Source: Candidatus Stoquefichus sp. SB1 (lineage in GTDB: Bacteria > Bacillota_I > Bacilli_A > Erysipelotrichales > Coprobacillaceae). From it: a stretch of 64,000 nt of DNA. Under the pieces are notes generated by a model. The model was given only the letters and a program-made list of their open reading frames with translations, was not told where the DNA came from and made no database searches. The DNA lies in NCBI RefSeq assembly GCF_001244545.1, contig NZ_LN852696.1, positions 558,001 through 622,000 of the forward strand. The letters are read 5' to 3'. Below are positions 41,936 to 53,204 of the stretch, one piece after another (within the stretch, counting starts at the first letter, position 1; each line of letters opens with the position of its first letter). A program made the translations under genes and the position numbers.

Positions 41936-41962
41936 ATGGTACTCATTTCAAGAAAAGTAAAG

Positions 41963-42004
41963 AATACCGTTATGATGAATTCATAACGGTATTATCAATT
42001 TTTT
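41963..42004 (+). terminator. Strong terminator after the XRE gene
   Basis: AATACCGTTATGA (41963-41975) pairs perfectly with its inverse at 41981-41993, followed by T residues. It is the first clear terminator after 31.9 kb. Confidence 0.88.
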
Positions 42005-42536: not shown

Positions 42537-42565
42537 TTGACATAATATGATTGGACGACTATAAT
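42537..42565 (+). promoter_or_regulatory. Perfect consensus promoter of the type I RM operon
   Basis: TTGACA (42537-42542) and TATAAT (42560-42565) are separated by exactly 17 bases. It is the only promoter I see before the HsdS-HsdR-HsdS-Fic-HsdM run. Confidence 0.8.
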
Positions 42566-42629: not shown

Positions 42630-43196
42630 TTGTTGGAAAGAAAATTGAGCGAATTTGTAACATTTATTCCTGGAGTTAATTCTACACGTGTTGAAAAACA
42701 GTTTGATTTACAGGATATAGAATATTATGATCAGACTTCTTTTGAAAGAGATCTGAATTATGATGAAACTGATGAGAATAATATTTTATTTTATGCCGAT
42801 CACGCTTTAAAGCAAGGAGATGTTGTTATAAGTAATTCTATGCAGCTAGCTACGATGATAGGTAAAAATAATGCTGGAAAAGTTCCTACACTTAATTTTA
42901 CGAAAGTAGAATTTAAGAATAATAATTTAGATAAACAATATTTTATTTATTTGTTCAATTGTTATGATGAAGTTAAGCGACAAAAAGAACGAGAACTTCA
43001 AGGAAGTACTATAGCTAGAATTCCAATTAAAGCTTTAAATGAATTGGTTATTCCTGTTGTCTCAATAAGCGAGCAAAAGAAAATTGGTACAATCTATAGT
43101 GAGATAATAAAATTACAGAATAAATTAGGAAAATATGCAACTTTAATAGAACAATTCACAAAAACGATACTTGATGATAATTTAAAAGGGAAGTGA
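42630..43196 (+). CDS. Half-size type I restriction specificity subunit (HsdS-like)
   Basis: A 188-residue protein with one target-recognition domain (residues ~1-150, including the HALKQGDVVISNSMQLATMIG and QGSTIARIPIKALNELVIPV segments) and one C-terminal coiled helix. A normal HsdS has two such units, so this is half-sized. It may dimerise or compete with the full HsdS encoded 3 kb downstream. The start is a TTG at 42630 or 42633 after GGGAGGAG. It lies four bases before the hsdR start. Confidence 0.78.
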   Translation: MLERKLSEFVTFIPGVNSTRVEKQFDLQDIEYYDQTSFERDLNYDETDENNILFYADHALKQGDVVISNSMQLATMIGKNNAGKVPTLNFTKVEFKNNNLDKQYFIYLFNCYDEVKRQKERELQGSTIARIPIKALNELVIPVVSISEQKKIGTIYSEIIKLQNKLGKYATLIEQFTKTILDDNLKGK

Positions 43197-43200
43197 GAAT

Positions 43201-46200
43201 ATGAGTAATTATAAAAGCAAATCAGAATTAGAGTTTGAAAGTGAAGTTATAGATTATCTTACAAAAATTGGTGGAGTAAAACAATGGGAGTATAAAAAGA
43301 ATATTAAGACAACAGAACAACTTTGGAATAATTTTAAATTGATTTTAGAACAAAACAATCAAATGAGATTAGATTATCCTTTATCAGTAACTGAATTTGC
43401 TCAAGTTAAAAAAATTATTTCAAGTATTGATACACCATATCATGCTGGACAGTTTTTATACGGAGTTAATGGTGTATCTGAAATAGAAATTGATCTTGAC
43501 AATGGAAAACATGTTTTTTTGACCGTTTTTGACCAAGCTCAAGTGGGTGGAGGAAACACTGTTTATCAAATAGTTAATCAAATTTTCCGCCCTAAAATTC
43601 TAGATGGTAAAAAGGATTGTCGTTTTGATATAACATTACTTATTAATGGGTTACCAATTATTCAAATTGAGTTAAAAAAAGCACTTCATAGTACTACAGA
43701 ATCTTTTAATCAAATGGAACAATATATTGCTGAAAAGCAGTATAGTGGAATTTTTTCAACTTTACAAATTCTTGTTGCAATGACACCATATGATATTCGT
43801 TATATGGCAAATACAAAATTAGAAGATTTTAATCGAGCTTTTGCATTTAATTGGCAAAATGAAGAAGATGCTCATCCAGTACGTTCATGGAAAACATTTG
43901 CAGATAATGTTCTTTCGATTCCTATGGCACATGATTTAGCAACGCGTTACATGGTTTTAGATGGAACTAAGAATAAAGAAAGTATCAAAGTTATGAGACC
44001 TTATCAAGTTTATGCGACAAAACGAGTCCTTGATAAAGTGCGTCAATTTGACTTTCAATATGATGATGGAAGATTAGGATATGTTTGGCATACGACTGGA
44101 TCTGGTAAGACGATTACGAGTTTTAAAACTGCGTGGCTTGCAAGTCGTTTGTCTAATGTAGATAAAGTTGTATTTTTAGTGGATCGTATTGCTTTAACTC
44201 GTCAGACTGCTTATGCGTATCAAGCATATGATCCTGTGGCAGGTTTTGAAGGAAATTCAGGGGTGGTAAGTGATACTGCAAATATATCAGACCTTCATCG
44301 TAAACTGATAAGGAAAAGTGATAAAAATATTATTGTAACAAGTATACAGAAAATGTCTCGCTATGTGGGAAAGAATAGTTTTAAACCATTAAGTGAAAGA
44401 ATTTTATTTATAGTTGATGAAGCGCATCGATCAACTGGTGATGGAACAGATAATGAGGGTATGCTTGAAAGTATCCGTAATGCTATTCCTAATTCTGCTT
44501 GGGTTGGGTATACAGGAACACCAAAGTTCCCTGCAACCCGTGAGATATTTGGTGATATATTGCATGCATACACAATCAAGGAGGCTATAGCAGATAAGAA
44601 TGTTCTAGGGTTTAATGTAGAGTTTAAGGAAACAATTGAAGCACCAGAAACATCTACAGAAGATGATATAGATGATACTATTCGAGGAAGTGTATATGAT
44701 TTCAGTCCTGAACATGTTAAATTAGTAGCTAAAGATATATTTGATAATTGGAAAGAACGTTCTAATAATAAAAAGTATAATGCTCTTTTTACAGTCCATG
44801 TGGGTGGAAATAAAGCTTCTACTCCAAGAGCGATGGAGTACTTTGATGAGTTTGCGGTTTTAAATGCCAAAAGACCAATAGAAGAACAGTTAAAAGTAGC
44901 AGTTAGTTTTTCAACTGATACATCTAATAGTGATCATCAATTAAAAACAAATCAAAACTTACATAGAGCAATTATAGCATATAATGAATTGTTTGGCACA
45001 AAATTTGATATGAAAACAGTTAAGCAATATACTGATGACTTGATCCGACGTCTTAATAAGACGGTAGATGATGGTAACTATTTGGATTTGGTTATTGTTG
45101 TTGATCAACTTTTAACAGGATTTGATGCACCAGAATTAAATACGCTTTATATTGATCGTACTTTAAAGGGAGGCAACTTAATTCAGGCATATTCACGTAC
45201 AAATCGTATACATCATTCTGATGATAAACCATTTGGTAATATTGTTAATTATCGTTGGCCTCAGCAAAATGAATATGAAATGAACAAAGCTTTTGCAGTA
45301 TATTCAAATCGTGCTTCTGCAGATGAACAATTAACACTTGAAGAGTTAAAAGTAGACAATGAAAAATTTGGAATCATATCAAAATCATTTAGTAAAGTTC
45401 AATCAGAAATTCAGGAAGTCATACAGAAACTTTCAACATTAACAGATGAATTTGTGCAATTGCCTCCAAGTGAAAAAGCACAAGATGAAGTTTATGAAAA
45501 CCTGAAAGAATACAATCGATTGCTAAGTCAATTAAAACAGTATACTCAAGATGATGATGGAAATCCGGTTTCAGCGTATGATAATCCAGAGGAGTTTTAC
45601 AATCTTTTGGGGATTACAGAAGAACAGGAAGTAATGTTGACAACTGTTATTGCTGGAGAACTTAAAGAACGACGAGCAAAAAGAGAAGATATTGATATTT
45701 CACAGATTAATCTTTCGATGATACATATTCATGAGGTCACAATTAATTATGATTATTTAGTTGATTTAATTGCAAAAATGGCTGATGAAGTTCATGATAA
45801 TAATATGAAGCAAGCAAAAAATACACGTGAAGAAATTCATATTGAAATTGCAAAATCAGATAATGAAAAAGAAAAATCTAAGATACGTAATTTTGTGTCT
45901 CAAATTTATTCAAAGGAATTTGTATTTGATGACTATCCTGCACCACGTAATGTTGAGAAAATGAATCAGGCAATGGATCGTGCACGAAATGATACTGTTA
46001 GACAATTGATTACGAGTTTCATTCGTACTTGGGGATTGGATAATAGTATAAAACCTAAAGAATTAGAAAAATTGATTGGAAAGCATAGATTTGGACAAGA
46101 GGATTTAGATAAACAGGGGGAATTAACTGCAATTATGAATGATGCTAGAAATGATTATGAAGAAATTGCAGCTAAAAATATCGCAAAATTATCATGGGTA

Positions 46201-46266
46201 AAATATCGTATTGAGTTACGCAAAGCATTTTATGCCATGGCTGATCAAATCAAGAGTGGAGAGTAG
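43201..46266 (+). CDS. hsdR: Type I restriction endonuclease subunit R
   Basis: A 1021-residue motor and nuclease subunit. An N-terminal PD-(D/E)xK nuclease lies at ~100-165, with the catalytic QIELKKA near residue 157. The SF2 translocase has Walker A HTTGSGKT near 300, a DEAH box VDEAHRS near 405 and the late AYSRTNRI arginine motif. A C-terminal helical region binds the methylase core. It cleaves unmethylated foreign DNA after ATP-driven translocation. Length and motif order are complete. Confidence 0.95.
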   Translation: MSNYKSKSELEFESEVIDYLTKIGGVKQWEYKKNIKTTEQLWNNFKLILEQNNQMRLDYPLSVTEFAQVKKIISSIDTPYHAGQFLYGVNGVSEIEIDLDNGKHVFLTVFDQAQVGGGNTVYQIVNQIFRPKILDGKKDCRFDITLLINGLPIIQIELKKALHSTTESFNQMEQYIAEKQYSGIFSTLQILVAMTPYDIRYMANTKLEDFNRAFAFNWQNEEDAHPVRSWKTFADNVLSIPMAHDLATRYMVLDGTKNKESIKVMRPYQVYATKRVLDKVRQFDFQYDDGRLGYVWHTTGSGKTITSFKTAWLASRLSNVDKVVFLVDRIALTRQTAYAYQAYDPVAGFEGNSGVVSDTANISDLHRKLIRKSDKNIIVTSIQKMSRYVGKNSFKPLSERILFIVDEAHRSTGDGTDNEGMLESIRNAIPNSAWVGYTGTPKFPATREIFGDILHAYTIKEAIADKNVLGFNVEFKETIEAPETSTEDDIDDTIRGSVYDFSPEHVKLVAKDIFDNWKERSNNKKYNALFTVHVGGNKASTPRAMEYFDEFAVLNAKRPIEEQLKVAVSFSTDTSNSDHQLKTNQNLHRAIIAYNELFGTKFDMKTVKQYTDDLIRRLNKTVDDGNYLDLVIVVDQLLTGFDAPELNTLYIDRTLKGGNLIQAYSRTNRIHHSDDKPFGNIVNYRWPQQNEYEMNKAFAVYSNRASADEQLTLEELKVDNEKFGIISKSFSKVQSEIQEVIQKLSTLTDEFVQLPPSEKAQDEVYENLKEYNRLLSQLKQYTQDDDGNPVSAYDNPEEFYNLLGITEEQEVMLTTVIAGELKERRAKREDIDISQINLSMIHIHEVTINYDYLVDLIAKMADEVHDNNMKQAKNTREEIHIEIAKSDNEKEKSKIRNFVSQIYSKEFVFDDYPAPRNVEKMNQAMDRARNDTVRQLITSFIRTWGLDNSIKPKELEKLIGKHRFGQEDLDKQGELTAIMNDARNDYEEIAAKNIAKLSWVKYRIELRKAFYAMADQIKSGE

Positions 46267-47569: not shown

Positions 47570-48178
47570 ATGTTAGAAAATAAACTTGGTATCAATAATT
47601 CAGCTGAACTTGCACGCAAAGAAGAACATATTAGTAAGACAAAAGCGGTAGAACTATTTGAAAATGGGTTGCTTGATACTTTTGAAGTAGGTACTTTTAA
47701 GGGATTAGCAGAAATACATCATTATCTTTTTAGTGATATTTATGATTTTGCTGGAAAAATGAGAGACGTGAATATTGCTAAAGGTGGATTTCGTTTTGCG
47801 CCAGTAATGTATTTAGATGCAGCATTAAAAAATATTGATAAAATGCCACAATCTGATTTTGATGAGATTATTGAAAAATATGTAGAGATGAATGTGGCTC
47901 ATCCTTTTCGTGAAGGTAACGGTCGAAGTACAAGAATATGGTTAGATTGTATTTTGAAAGAAGAACTAAAATGTGTTATTGATTGGAATGAAGTTAATAA
48001 AGAAGATTACTTATTGGCAATGGAGAGAAGTCCGATTAAAGATGTGGAAATTAAAGTTTTATTAAAGAAAGCATTAACTGATAAAATTAATGACCGTGAA
48101 GTATATATGAAAGGTATTGATGCAAGTTATTATTATGAGGGATATAATATTTATAAGACTGAAAATGTGAAAAAATAG
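47570..48178 (+). CDS. Fic/Doc-family AMP-transferase, probable class III (self-inhibited)
   Basis: A 202-residue Fic protein. The active-site motif [12 protein letters not shown] has catalytic H111, and the [25 protein letters not shown] helices precede it. A C-terminal SYYYEG (S186-G191) fits the (S/T)xxxE(G/N) inhibitory motif of class III Fic proteins. It lies between hsdS and hsdM in the same operon, a known position for Fic and Doc genes in type I loci. It would AMPylate a host target when de-inhibited. AAAGGAAT is the ribosome site. Confidence 0.9.
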
Positions 48179-48237
48179 TATATTCATTAACGTTGTTAGA
48201 ATATATAATGAACTATATGAAAAAGGAGACAGCATAT

Positions 48238-49860
48238 ATGAGTAAAGCACAAGATATAACAAAAAAACTTTGGGAGATGGCAAACAAACTGCGTGGAACT
48301 ATGGATGCAAGTGAATATAAAAACTATATTTTACCATTTATGTTTTATCGTTATTTATCAGAAAATCAACATAAACATCTGCTAGATAATCATTTGGAAG
48401 ATTTTTATAATGTAATAGATAGAGAAGAAAAAGAACAGTATCTTGAAGAATGCTCTAGAGGAATTGGATATGCAATTGCTCCAGAGTATACATGGGACAA
48501 AATTGTATCAAAAATTGAAACACATAAAATAAAAGCTAGTGATTTCCAAGACATGTTTGATTCATTTAATACGAATGCTAGACGTAATCCTATTGCTGCA
48601 TCTGATTTTGCTGATGTTTTTTCAGATGTTAATCTTGGTGATACGCGTCTTGGTTTAAATACTAATGAACGTGCAAAAGCACTTAATGATATTGTACTCA
48701 TGATTAATGAATTTAATTTTAAAGATGAATCAGGGCATGATATTTTGGGTGATGTTTATGAATATTTAATAGGTCAATTTGCTGCAAGTGCTGGGAAAAA
48801 GGGTGGGGAGTTTTATACACCACATGAAGTGAGTCAAATCTTAGCAAGGCTTGTTACTATCAATGTGAAAAAAAATGATGATCAATTTAGAGTATATGAT
48901 CCTACAATGGGATCAGGTTCTTTGCTTTTAACAGTTCAAAAAGAATTACCATATGGGAATGAAGAGGGGAGTGTTGATTTTTTTGGTCAAGAATTAAATA
49001 CAACCACATATAATTTGGCACGAATGAATTTAATGATGCATGGTGTTAACTATAAAAATATGGAATTAAGACGTGCAAATACATTAGATGCTGATTGGCC
49101 ATTTGCTGAAAAAAAAGGAATTCAAATTCCTCGCAAGTTTGATGCAGTGGTTGCTAATCCACCATATTCACAAAAATGGGACATAAAGAATGTTGATCGT
49201 GAAAAAGATACGCGTTTTAAAGGATTTGGTGTTGCACCTGCATCAAAAGCAGATTATGCATTTGTTTTACATGGACTTTATCATTTAGAAAAAACTGGAA
49301 CAATGGCTATTGTATTGCCACATGGTGTTTTATTTAGAGGAGCATCAGAAGGTAAAATACGAAAAAATATCATAAACGAAAATCTATTAGATGCTGTTAT
49401 TGGATTGCCTGCGAATCTTTTCTATGGAACTAGTATTCCAACATGTATATTGGTTTTTAAAGGGCGTGAAGCTCGAGGAAAAAGAAAAGATATTCTTTTT
49501 ATAGATGCTTCTAAAGATTTTAAAAAAGGAAAAAATCAAAACAAACTTACTGGAGATAATATTGACAAAATTGTTAACACATATAAAAAACGTATTGATG
49601 AAGATAAATATGCTCATGTAGCTACTTTAGAAGAGATTAGAGAAAATGATTATAATTTGAATATTCCACGTTATGTTGATACATTTGAAGAAGAAAAGAT
49701 TATACCGCTGCCAAAAATAGCTAAGGAATTGAAAGAATTAGATGCAGATATTAAAAGATCAACAGATGAATTGTTTCAATTATTAAATGAGTTAACAGGT
49801 ACAACAGAAGAAGCCAAAAATGAATTGAAAGAGTTTGTTAATATACTAAATAAAAAATAA
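48238..49860 (+). CDS. hsdM: Type I DNA methyltransferase subunit M
   Basis: A 540-residue N6-adenine methyltransferase. The N-terminal helical HsdM domain (~1-140) is followed by the catalytic domain, with SAM motif DPTMGSGSLL near residue 221 and NPPYS at 307-311. It modifies the host recognition sites with HsdS. The ATG at 48238 follows AAAAGGAGA; an in-frame ATG at 48193 has no site. It is the last intact gene of the operon and has a decayed homologue directly downstream. Confidence 0.95.
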   Translation: MSKAQDITKKLWEMANKLRGTMDASEYKNYILPFMFYRYLSENQHKHLLDNHLEDFYNVIDREEKEQYLEECSRGIGYAIAPEYTWDKIVSKIETHKIKASDFQDMFDSFNTNARRNPIAASDFADVFSDVNLGDTRLGLNTNERAKALNDIVLMINEFNFKDESGHDILGDVYEYLIGQFAASAGKKGGEFYTPHEVSQILARLVTINVKKNDDQFRVYDPTMGSGSLLLTVQKELPYGNEEGSVDFFGQELNTTTYNLARMNLMMHGVNYKNMELRRANTLDADWPFAEKKGIQIPRKFDAVVANPPYSQKWDIKNVDREKDTRFKGFGVAPASKADYAFVLHGLYHLEKTGTMAIVLPHGVLFRGASEGKIRKNIINENLLDAVIGLPANLFYGTSIPTCILVFKGREARGKRKDILFIDASKDFKKGKNQNKLTGDNIDKIVNTYKKRIDEDKYAHVATLEEIRENDYNLNIPRYVDTFEEEKIIPLPKIAKELKELDADIKRSTDELFQLLNELTGTTEEAKNELKEFVNILNKK

Positions 49861-49961
49861 AAGAGTGTAATTAAGGTGATCTATGGTTTAATTAAGCTAA
49901 ATAATATAGAGATTTATTTCAATATACTTAAAAAATCTGATAGTAAGTAAGGAGTAATAAA

Positions 49962-50351
49962 ATGGTTGAAGCACACGGAAACAAAGGATACAATATATTT
50001 AGATTATTATGGGAAAAAACAGAAGTATTGCTTACTGAGATGGATAGAAATGAAATTCGTGATTTTTTAATGGGACTACTATTTTATAAATATTTATCTG
50101 ATACTGTGATTTGCTATGTTGGCAATTATTTTGAAATGCCAATAAATAATTTGGAAGAAATACAGAAAACTTATGAAGAAAATTTCAAAAATAACGATGT
50201 AGCTAAAGTGCTTATTGCTGATATGAAAAAAGAATTGTCATTCTATATAGAACCCGATTTAACATTTATTTATTTTGTAAAAAATTTAAATTCTTCAAAT
50301 TTTGCACTGATTAAACTACTATGTGGATTAAAAAAAATAAAAATCGAATGA
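49962..50351 (+). pseudogene. N-terminal fragment of a second HsdM-like gene
   Basis: These 129 codons encode the helical N-terminus of an HsdM homologue (IFRLLWEKTEVLLTEMDRNEIRDFLMGLLFYKYLSD). The frame ends in an A-rich tract; reading on after removal of one A between 50,339 and 50,343 continues without a break into the next fragment. AAGGAG precedes the ATG. It is thus the 5' piece of one ancestral gene covering 49,962-52,457. Confidence 0.75.
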
Positions 50352-51411
50352 ATTTTTTGAAATTGTTATTAAGAGTATTGAATTATATAACTCTAAAGTT
50401 GAAAGTATTTCAAAAAGAGTTCATGAAGCAATTTGTGATATCATAAGAGAACTTTCAACGATGATTGTTTTAGAACGAGATTCCAACTTTTTGGGTGATG
50501 CATTTGAATATTTAATACATATGTTTCTATATAATTCTCAAACAATACAACGTCAATTTTATACTCCATCTGAAGTATCAGATATGATGGTACGAATATC
50601 GATGATTGGGAAAGAAAATGAAAAAAACGTTTTTGTTTATGATGGTTCGTTGGGTTCAGGAATATTATTGTTTAGTATCTTCAAACATATAGGTAATACT
50701 CATAATCTTTGCTATTATGGACAAGAATATAATGATTCAACTGTTTATGATATTGCACGAATTAATATGATACTTCATGGTATACCTATGAATAAGGTCA
50801 ATCTACACATGACAACATCATTAAATGAAAACTGGCCTAGTAGCGTTGAGAACTCATTGAAGTTTGATGTCGTATTAATGAATCCACCATTTTCAATGAA
50901 ATGGACACCAGAAAAACAATTTTTACAAGATCCAAGATTTTCAACATATGAATGTCTTGCTCCTAAATCAAACGCAGATTTTGCTTTTATTTTGCATGGC
51001 TTGTATTATCTTAAAGAGACAGGCACAATGGCAATAATTGTACCTTATGGTGTCTTAACAAGAGGTGGTGTAGAACATAAAATTAGAAAAAAACTATTGG
51101 ATAAGGGGGCAATATATGCAGTAATATCTATGCCAGACAGAATTTTTTATAATACTGCAACAGCCACAACAATATTGGTTTTAAAAAAGAATACAAAACT
51201 TAAAGATGTATTATTTATAGATGCTTCTAGAGAGTTCAAAAAGGTTAAAAATAGAAATGTTTTAACAGAGAATTGTATTCAAAAAATTGTAGATACTTAT
51301 ACTAAAAGAAGATGTTTTGACAAATATGCTTATTTAGCTAGTTATGAAGAAATAAAGGAAATGACTATAATCTTAATATATATAATTATATTAATTTGTT
51401 TTCAGATATGA
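50344..51411 (+). pseudogene. Catalytic fragment of the second HsdM-like gene
   Basis: This frame carries the methylase core: FLGDAFEYLIHMF, FYTPSEVSDMMVR, the SAM motif as DGSLGSGILL, and NPPFS in place of NPPYS. It is clearly homologous to the intact HsdM but diverged, so it is not a recent duplicate. An ATG at 50,461 could start a shorter product. The end is garbled after EEIKE; restoring one A near 51,359-51,361 gives NDYNLNIYNYINLFSD, parallel to NDYNLNIPRYVDTF of HsdM, and joins the next frame. Confidence 0.75.
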
Positions 51412-52457
51412 TTGGGGAAGAAAGAAATTTGCTTAAGGATATTGCTGATATATATACTAGTTGTGATTGTGAAAAATCGGAAGGACTTTTTTTGAAATAT
51501 AGTGATTTAAAATATCCAATTAAAAACAATTTCTCAAGGCAATACGATTATGGTATAGTTTTAAAATATGGGGATATAATTATATGTCCAGGTGGAAGAA
51601 AGTTTTTATTTTATGAAAAAAATAATGAAAACTTTGTGTTATCAAAGACAGCAAGGAGTATTCTAGTTATAAGACCAAAAAATATTTGCTCAGAGGTCCT
51701 GTTTCTTTATTTAGAAACGAAAGAAATATCTGATTACTTATCTAATTTAAGTGGGAGGACAGTGATACAAAGAATCAGTAAAAAAAATTTAGAAAACTTG
51801 CCTTTATCTAAAGAATTACCTCCTTTATCAGCTCATATATTAAATAAGCCATATATTGATTTGTTTATAGAAAAATATATTAGTAAAATAAATACTGTTT
51901 ATTTATCAGATTTGTTAAAAACAGTAAACAAAAGATTGGTAGAAAGAACTAGTGATATATCAAAAGAATGTATAGAGTTAATAGAAAAACAGTCAGAGGG
52001 AATTTATTGGGATTTCAAGTTGAAACATTATGAAAATACTGCGTATTTATTGCACGATATTTTATGTATGGCCAATAATATTGCAGATAGAGATTCATAT
52101 ATTATTATGGGCGTCGAAGATAAAACGTGTAGAGTGATTGGTGTAGAGCATGACAATGGAAGAAAAGATTCTACTTATTTCAATTCGGTTCTTAAAACAG
52201 CTAATTTTTTTGAAAATAATATACCATTATTTAATTTGCATACCTTTATATATAAAAATCATGAGATTGATGTTCTAATAATTAAACATACTACTAAAAG
52301 GCCTTATTTTCTAATTGAAAATTATAGAAAGGGTAAGGTTGATGTTAGAGCTAATTTTATTTATGCACGAGAATCAGATTCTAATACAGATATAGATAAA
52401 ACGGCATCAGCTAACGCTATAAAACATCTATGGGAGGAAAGAATTAATAATTCGTAG
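51396..52457 (+). CDS. HsdS-like segment plus AlbA_2 domain (3' part of the broken HsdM fusion)
   Basis: 353 codons. Residues ~1-165 resemble an HsdS target-recognition half (LKYGDIIICPGGRKFLFYE, SGRTVIQRISKKNLENLPL). Residues ~190-345 match the Schlafen AlbA_2 DNA-binding domain (IYWDFKLKHYENTAYLLHDILCMAN, then SYIIMGVED). It may be translated from the ATG at 51,396, but the frame continues upstream into the HsdM end once one lost base is restored. The ancestral product would have been an 831-residue methylase-specificity-AlbA_2 fusion. No terminator follows. Confidence 0.65.
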   Translation: MFSDMIGEERNLLKDIADIYTSCDCEKSEGLFLKYSDLKYPIKNNFSRQYDYGIVLKYGDIIICPGGRKFLFYEKNNENFVLSKTARSILVIRPKNICSEVLFLYLETKEISDYLSNLSGRTVIQRISKKNLENLPLSKELPPLSAHILNKPYIDLFIEKYISKINTVYLSDLLKTVNKRLVERTSDISKECIELIEKQSEGIYWDFKLKHYENTAYLLHDILCMANNIADRDSYIIMGVEDKTCRVIGVEHDNGRKDSTYFNSVLKTANFFENNIPLFNLHTFIYKNHEIDVLIIKHTTKRPYFLIENYRKGKVDVRANFIYARESDSNTDIDKTASANAIKHLWEERINNS

Positions 52458-53153: not shown

Positions 53154-53187
53154 CCAAAGCATAACCACCTACCGTTATGATTATTCC
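53154..53187. repeat. Toxin mRNA leader repeat, inverted copy of the antitoxin 5' end
   Basis: Read on the minus strand, the leader has GGAATAATC followed by GGTTATGCTTTGG. The antisense RNA has GGAATAATC at 52,907-52,915 and GGTTATGCCTTGG at 52,923-52,935. Both RNAs thus start with nearly the same sequence. Confidence 0.55.
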
Positions 53188-53195
53188 ATGACAAT

Positions 53196-53204
53196 ATTAT
53201 AGCA
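53196..53204 (-). promoter_or_regulatory. Extended -10 promoter of the toxin mRNA
   Basis: TGC-TATAAT on the minus strand is an extended -10. The -35 position shows no consensus. Confidence 0.55.

What the first reader, a model, noticed from the sequence alone, without database searches (positions are those of the whole stretch)
49962..52457. A broken HsdM-HsdS-AlbA_2 fusion gene with two compensating one-base frameshifts
Three adjacent frames join into one 831-codon reading if one A is removed near 50,339-50,343 and one A is restored near 51,359-51,361. The joined protein would carry a helical HsdM N-terminus, a methylase core (DGSLGSG, NPPFS), an HsdS-like half and an AlbA_2 domain. A single chain combining modification, recognition and a Schlafen-type AlbA_2 domain directly behind a complete type I operon is unusual and could be a little-described defence effector. 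The net shift is zero, so phase variation, assembly error or true decay are all possible.
Basis: partly seen in the sequence, partly recalled or inferred. Interest (0 to 1): 0.75.

Follow-up and report, generated by a model that had tools for sequence, protein, structure and literature searches.

The report
Broken methylase–AlbA_2 fusion beside restriction operon
Behind a complete type I restriction operon sits a gene, broken at two places in this genome, that once joined a diverged DNA methylase, half of a DNA-recognition subunit and a Schlafen-type (RNA-cutting) domain in one chain; no intact copy was found, but separate Schlafen-type genes recur inside restriction operons, which hints at a fail-safe for when restriction is blocked.

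Summary
Three abutting frames (open 49947-50351, 50341-51411, 51348-52457) carry, in order, HsdM_N, an N6 methylase, a weak HsdS-like half and an AlbA_2 domain. Homology runs across both joints, and the NDYNLNI motif resumes in the third frame exactly where the second leaves off. None of 72 comparable genes in this assembly is frame-broken, both breaks lie at short A-runs, and a change in the nearby A8 run would not join the frames. Recent decay fits better than assembly error or phase variation. The methylase part is not a copy of the neighbouring HsdM: it violates 18 of 72 near-invariant HsdM positions (others 0-4), while its reading frame stayed open. The AlbA_2 part keeps the Schlafen acidic residues and its model matches SAMD9 and SLFN ribonuclease domains. 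No intact single-chain homologue was found (about 650 genomes, plasmids, phages, viral contigs). Separate AlbA_2 genes do lie inside or directly beside type I, type III and BcgI-like operons at six independent loci, a PrrC-like arrangement. Best reading: a recently inactivated variant of restriction-linked AlbA_2 effector, fused to a methylase/half-S module. The fused architecture rests on this one broken copy; the mechanism is inferred.

The parts
42537..42565 (+). consensus sigma-70-type promoter (TTGACA-17-TATAAT) before the hsd cluster
   Evidence: pattern match only
42630..43196 (+). half-size HsdS (188 aa)
   Evidence: Pfam Methylase_S 3.6e-8
43201..46266 (+). HsdR, 1021 aa
   Evidence: HSDR_N, SWI2_SNF2, T1R_D3-like, EcoR124_C; TIGR00348
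46305..47549 (+). HsdS, 414 aa
   Evidence: Methylase_S 4.6e-22, two stretches
47570..48178 (+). Fic protein inside the hsd operon
   Evidence: NCBIfam ProtAdlyltaseNmFic 2.5e-96; PADLOC PDC-S04
48193..49860 (+). HsdM, 555 aa (intact partner methylase)
   Evidence: N6_Mtase 1.1e-113, HsdM_N 1.2e-21
49962..50351 (+). piece A of the broken gene: HsdM N-terminal domain; RBS AAGGAG just upstream
   Evidence: HsdM_N 7.3e-6; RBS
50338..50351 (+). first frame break (A to B); frame B stop at 50338-50340, frame A stop at 50349-50351
50341..51411 (+). piece B: N6 methylase core (DGSLGSG, NPPF), diverged
   Evidence: N6_Mtase 1.3e-82; 18 of 72 near-invariant HsdM columns changed; branch 1.36 against a median of 0.14
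51348..51411 (+). second frame break (B to C), pinned by homology near 51360
   Evidence: HSPs abut
51361..51947 (+). piece C, first part: end of the M homology (NDYNLNI), then a half-HsdS-like recognition region and helix
   Evidence: Methylase_S 0.0022 and Specificity_I 1.6e-4, weak; hhalign not significant; helices 151-197 in the low-confidence part of the model
51948..52457 (+). piece C, second part: AlbA_2 (Schlafen-type) domain, PDC-S50 family, without that family's ~210-residue C-terminal half
   Evidence: PDC-S50 1.9e-60; model pLDDT about 94; SAMD9 tRNase Z 9.0, SLFN5/11/13/14 Z about 7
51996..52058 (+). conserved acidic site: E201, D206, K208, D221 of piece C (E-x4-D-x-K ... D)
   Evidence: invariant in 14 relatives

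Best explanation
The locus is a recently inactivated restriction-linked accessory gene. Shown: before the two breaks, the frames encoded in order an HsdM-like methylase module, a half-HsdS-like recognition region (weakly supported) and a Schlafen-type AlbA_2 domain, placed directly behind a type I operon. Inferred: the intact chain dimerised through its half-S helix, as M~S methylases are thought to do, docked on or imitated the type I modification complex, and kept a nucleic-acid-cutting (probably RNA or tRNA cutting) AlbA_2 domain silent. Loss or blocking of the restriction complex, for example by a phage anti-restriction protein, would release it and stop translation. This is the logic of PrrC with EcoprrI. 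In this genome the gene is off.
For: Collinear domains across both breaks. Clean assembly: 0 of 72 comparable genes frame-broken. Frames otherwise free of stops although the methylase has diverged far, so it evolved as a read gene until recently. Acidic residues invariant, similar to the E-x4-E pair needed in SLFN13 (PMC5862951); SAMD9L needs its SLFN-like E198/D243 site for translation shut-off (PMC11221667). Fold match to the SAMD9 tRNase domain and SLFNs. Separate AlbA_2 genes in or beside restriction operons: R-M-AlbA_2-S in L071; R-M-S-AlbA_2 in L166 and RM-S-AlbA_2 in L164; mod-AlbA_2-res in L076 and res-AlbA_2 in L072; AlbA_2-mod-res in L094. Precedent: PrrC in EcoprrI (PMC3874165; PMC2610378).
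Against: No intact single-chain homologue anywhere searched. The half-HsdS assignment is weak by sequence (E 0.0022, below cut-off; hhalign not significant) and modelled poorly. Many PDC-S50 genes are not next to restriction genes. The RNase role rests on residues and fold only; AlbA_2 domains can also bind DNA. The window copy lacks the C-terminal half of stand-alone PDC-S50 proteins.
Confidence: 0.45

Rival explanations
1. The join of half-S to AlbA_2 is itself a product of decay: a deletion fused the remnant of an M~S gene to a neighbouring AlbA_2 gene, and the whole never worked as one chain.
For: No intact fusion found. The AlbA_2 part lacks the C-terminal half of stand-alone relatives. 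M-S-AlbA_2 exists as separate neighbouring genes in L166 and L164. PDC-S50 genes in this order are often broken.
Against: Piece C is open through the joint for 369 codons. The AlbA_2 domain keeps all conserved residues and ends at a domain edge, as the short, separate AlbA_2 gene of L071 does.
Confidence: 0.3
2. Assembly or consensus error: the gene is intact in the living strain.
For: Both breaks are single-base and compensating, next to A-runs.
Against: 0 of 72 orthologous-looking genes of this assembly are split by frameshift; two errors in one 2.5-kb gene would be unlikely. The runs that join the frames are short; A/T run-length spectra of this genome and its relatives are alike.
Confidence: 0.12
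3. Phase-variable gene: slippage at A-runs switches the chain on and off.
For: A run of eight A, rare in this genome (0.65 per 10 kb), lies at 50330-50337 beside the first break.
Against: A one-base change in that run meets the frame B stop at 50338-50340, so it does not join the frames; the second break is in a run of three. Two independent switches would be needed.
Confidence: 0.05
4. Three separately translated proteins, each useful: the gene is split, not broken.
For: Each piece is a clean domain unit.
Against: Only the first start has a ribosome-binding site; starts near 51396 and 51408 lack one. Piece A is only part of HsdM_N.
Confidence: 0.05

Closest known systems
PrrC anticodon nuclease in the EcoprrI type Ic operon (and RloC)
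   Same: an RNA-cutting effector tied to a type I system, silent until restriction is blocked (PMC3874165; PMC2610378)
   Different: PrrC has ABC-ATPase motifs and an Arg-Glu-His site, is a separate gene inside the operon and is intact; here an AlbA_2 domain is fused to M and half-S and the gene is broken; activity untested
PADLOC PDC-S50 (stand-alone AlbA_2 proteins, candidate phage defence)
   Same: same AlbA_2 subfamily (1.9e-60) and same conserved residues
   Different: PDC-S50 relatives are about 365-420 aa with a second half that is missing here, and are not fused to a methylase
Homodimeric gamma-methyltransferases of the M.DrdI/M.XmnI kind and M.AhdI ('Type 1 1/2')
   Same: methylase joined to, or paired with, a half-S recognition unit with a dimerisation helix (PMC3874165 sections 34, 35)
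   Different: none is described there with an AlbA_2 domain; the M part here is strongly diverged
SAMD9/SAMD9L and SLFN11/13 AlbA_2 ribonuclease domains
   Same: fold (Z 7-9) and acidic residues
   Different: animal proteins with other partner domains
rlo/mlo genes of Campylobacter jejuni hsd loci
   Same: extra genes placed inside type I operons (PMC5183652)
   Different: separate genes; kinship to AlbA_2 not tested

Membership tests
Type I HsdM methylase | HsdM_N plus N6_Mtase domains in order | tested here: met
   both above cut-off, in pieces A and B
Type I HsdM methylase | SAM-binding motif and NPP(Y/F/W) catalytic motif | tested here: met
   DGSLGSG and NPPF in piece B; activity unknown
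Type I HsdM methylase | near-invariant HsdM positions kept | tested here: not met
   18 of 72 changed, against 0-4 in 30 other HsdMs
Type I HsdM methylase | uninterrupted reading frame | tested here: not met
   two frame breaks
HsdS / M~S composite methylase | Methylase_S recognition domain | tested here: inconclusive
   Pfam E 0.0022 below cut-off, PADLOC Specificity_I 1.6e-4; hhalign not significant
SLFN_AlbA_2 (PF04326) | Pfam score above cut-off | tested here: not met
   no hit at E up to 10 for the window copy; relatives pass
SLFN_AlbA_2 (PF04326) | Schlafen/AlbA_2 fold | tested here: met
   pLDDT about 94; 3lmm Z 10.2 (rmsd 3.8, 138 aligned), 9o0d Z 9.0 (4.2, 158), SLFN13 Z 6.9 (3.4, 114)
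SLFN_AlbA_2 (PF04326) | acidic site E-x4-(E/D)-x-K and a later D | tested here: met
   E201, D206, K208, D221 invariant
PDC-S50 | AlbA_2 half of the profile | tested here: met
   positions 5-167 of 387, 1.9e-60
PDC-S50 | C-terminal half of the profile | tested here: not met
   absent; protein ends after the AlbA_2 domain
PrrC / RloC | ABC-ATPase and anticodon-nuclease domain | tested here: not met
   no such match in Pfam, PADLOC or NCBIfam scans of the three pieces
Type IIG / single-chain restriction enzyme | nuclease domain fused to M and S | tested here: not met
   no known restriction nuclease domain in Pfam scans; AlbA_2 nuclease activity untested

The most novel reading that the evidence does not exclude
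A single-chain, DNA-guided Schlafen effector: a diverged methylase with half-S reads the modification state, or acts as bait for anti-restriction proteins, and its fused AlbA_2 domain cuts RNA when the type I system is blocked. AlbA_2 would then be a third kind of restriction-linked RNA-cutting guard beside PrrC and RloC, found in type I, type III and BcgI-like operons.
Probability: 0.2. Interest if true: 0.8.

Novelty: new variant of a known kind. Interest (0 to 1): 0.45.

Why it matters
If the link holds, Schlafen-type RNases known from animal antiviral defence would have bacterial counterparts wired directly to restriction-modification enzymes, and the six linked loci give genes on which this can be tested. 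The fused version would show the coupling in one chain. As it stands the window copy is a broken gene, so its value is as a pointer.

Tried and rejected
Tandem duplication of the neighbouring HsdM: rejected, the tree puts the broken methylase with another HsdM clade (L022-L027), not with M1 (a long branch, so its exact place is unsure). Long HsdM proteins of 817-900 aa as intact relatives: rejected, their C-terminal extensions have no AlbA_2 match. Intact fusion in E. coli genomes (DNA search), phages, plasmids, viral contigs, Mollicutes: none. A8 slippage as a switch: rejected. First structure job with 3 sequences was useless. Sequence search of the AlbA_2 profile against PDB sequences gave nothing significant; only the fold comparison did. 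PDC-S50, and HsdM together with AlbA_2, gave no paper in the library. The inactive M~half-S proteins of G099 and others are analogues, only weakly similar to this gene.

Full report
Observation. The three frames are real and lie as described. Frame A, starting at ATG 49962 behind a good ribosome-binding site, stops at 50349-50351. Frame B is open from 50341 to a stop at 51409-51411. Frame C is open from 51348 to 52455-52457. A translated search with the neighbouring HsdM aligns to all three frames in order; the second and third alignments abut at 51360, where NDYNLNI continues in frame C. A PADLOC methylase profile is covered collinearly by pieces A and B. The 369-codon open run was not approached in 1000 Markov shuffles (maximum 138).

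Surroundings. Upstream lie half-HsdS, HsdR, HsdS, Fic and HsdM, all on the + strand, with a 101-bp gap before the broken gene. The terminator scan shows none in that gap, so co-transcription is possible but not shown.

What the pieces are. Piece A is HsdM_N; piece B is an N6 methylase whose nearest solved relative is a type I methyltransferase subunit, 3lkd (2e-96). The start of piece C looks like half an HsdS, but only weakly, and the structure model has low confidence there. The end of piece C is an AlbA_2 domain of PADLOC family PDC-S50 (1.9e-60). The window copy gives no Pfam AlbA_2 match, though its relatives do. The model of this part is confident (pLDDT about 94) and matches DIP2311 (Z 10.2), the SAMD9 tRNase domain (Z 9.0) and SLFN5, 11, 13 and 14 (Z about 7). 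The motif E-x4-D-x-K and a later D are invariant in 14 relatives, in a spacing like SLFN13's E205/E210 pair.

State of the gene. I compared 72 orthologous-looking proteins of a same-genus genome with this assembly; none was split by a frameshift (the three flagged cases are tandem paralogues), while three of 76 were split in the other genome. So the assembly is clean and two errors in one gene are unlikely. The frames can be joined only within 50338-50351 and 51348-51411, at short A-runs; changing the length of the A8 at 50330-50337 by one runs into the frame B stop. Phase variation is therefore unlikely. I do not propose any repair of the sequence. Decay is common in this family: of about ten PDC-S50 genes or remnants in the order, at most three are intact or nearly so.

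Divergence. The methylase part is not a copy of HsdM next door: the tree places it with a different HsdM clade on the longest branch (1.36 against a median of 0.14). It changes 18 of 72 near-invariant HsdM positions, against 0-4 in each of 30 other HsdMs, including M1 with 3. About 6% of random substitutions would create a stop, so such divergence under pure decay should have left many stops; there are none inside the pieces. It therefore evolved mostly as a read gene, under altered constraint, and broke recently (inference).

Homologues. About 650 distinct genomes were searched (relatives, the order, evenly drawn members of the phylum and of the Mollicutes), plus plasmids, phages and viral contigs. 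No other HsdM-HsdS-AlbA_2 chain appeared; every intact AlbA_2 relative is a separate gene. However, AlbA_2 genes lie within or directly beside restriction operons at six independent loci: L071 R-M-AlbA_2-S; L166 R-M-S-AlbA_2 and L164 BcgI-like RM-S-AlbA_2, the latter cut by the contig end; L076 mod-AlbA_2-res and L072 res-AlbA_2; L094 AlbA_2-mod-res. The AlbA_2 proteins of L071, L072 and L094 are close to PDC-S50; those of L164, L166 and L076 are more distant. Many other AlbA_2 genes have no restriction neighbours, so linkage is recurrent, not universal, and I have no genome-wide control rate.

Mechanism. The most likely reading is a restriction-linked effector that works like PrrC: PrrC is sequestered in the EcoprrI complex and released by a phage anti-restriction factor to cut tRNA. 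A methylase joined to a half-S would be expected to dimerise, as M.DrdI-type methylases are thought to do, presenting two AlbA_2 domains. Shown: domains, order, conserved residues, fold, linkage elsewhere, broken state. Inferred: dimerisation, silencing by the type I complex, RNA target, trigger.

Verdict. A real, recently broken gene with an architecture not seen elsewhere in this search; most likely a new variant of restriction-linked AlbA_2 effectors. The fusion rests on one broken copy and could be a chance product of decay (0.3).

Noticed in passing
L170:5756-7396, L181:6164-7915, L182:1232-3094, L183:6302-8017, L185:7062-8819(-), L186:4485-6149(-), L188:4429-6006(-), L189:3683-4480(-): A family of about 520-620 aa proteins joining a methylase-like part without NPP(Y/F) or a motif I to a half-HsdS sits next to type I operon genes in 8 of 10 genomes where found; it looks like an inactive decoy or sensor subunit. 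In L166/L170 and L188 an AlbA_2 or AlbA_2/HATPase-type gene is nearby.
   Followed up: partly
L072, L076, L094: AlbA_2 genes directly beside or between mod and res genes of type III systems.
   Followed up: partly
L071:4486-13510: Mollicute type I locus with R, M, AlbA_2, S, an integrase and further HsdS genes in the opposite direction, as in HsdS-inverting systems.
   Followed up: no
window 47570-48178: NmFic-type Fic gene inside the hsd operon between HsdS and HsdM.
   Followed up: no
window 42630-43196: Half-size HsdS ahead of HsdR, with a consensus promoter at 42537-42565.
   Followed up: no
window 41953-42003 and 53170-53200: A palindromic hairpin before the hsd cluster and a similar 31-nt stretch (81%) after the broken gene, 11.2 kb apart; possible island borders or terminators.
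   Followed up: no
L057-L066: HsdM proteins of 817-900 aa with a C-terminal extension of about 350-440 residues and no Pfam family there, in otherwise ordinary type I operons.
   Followed up: partly
G000, G001 and relatives: A/T runs of 8 or more are sharply rarer than runs of 7 (7.88 to 0.65 per 10 kb in G000), alike in all genomes sampled.
   Followed up: partly
L087:7811-9028: Intact PDC-S50 AlbA_2 gene next to phage-structural-looking genes in a viral contig, as cargo.
   Followed up: no
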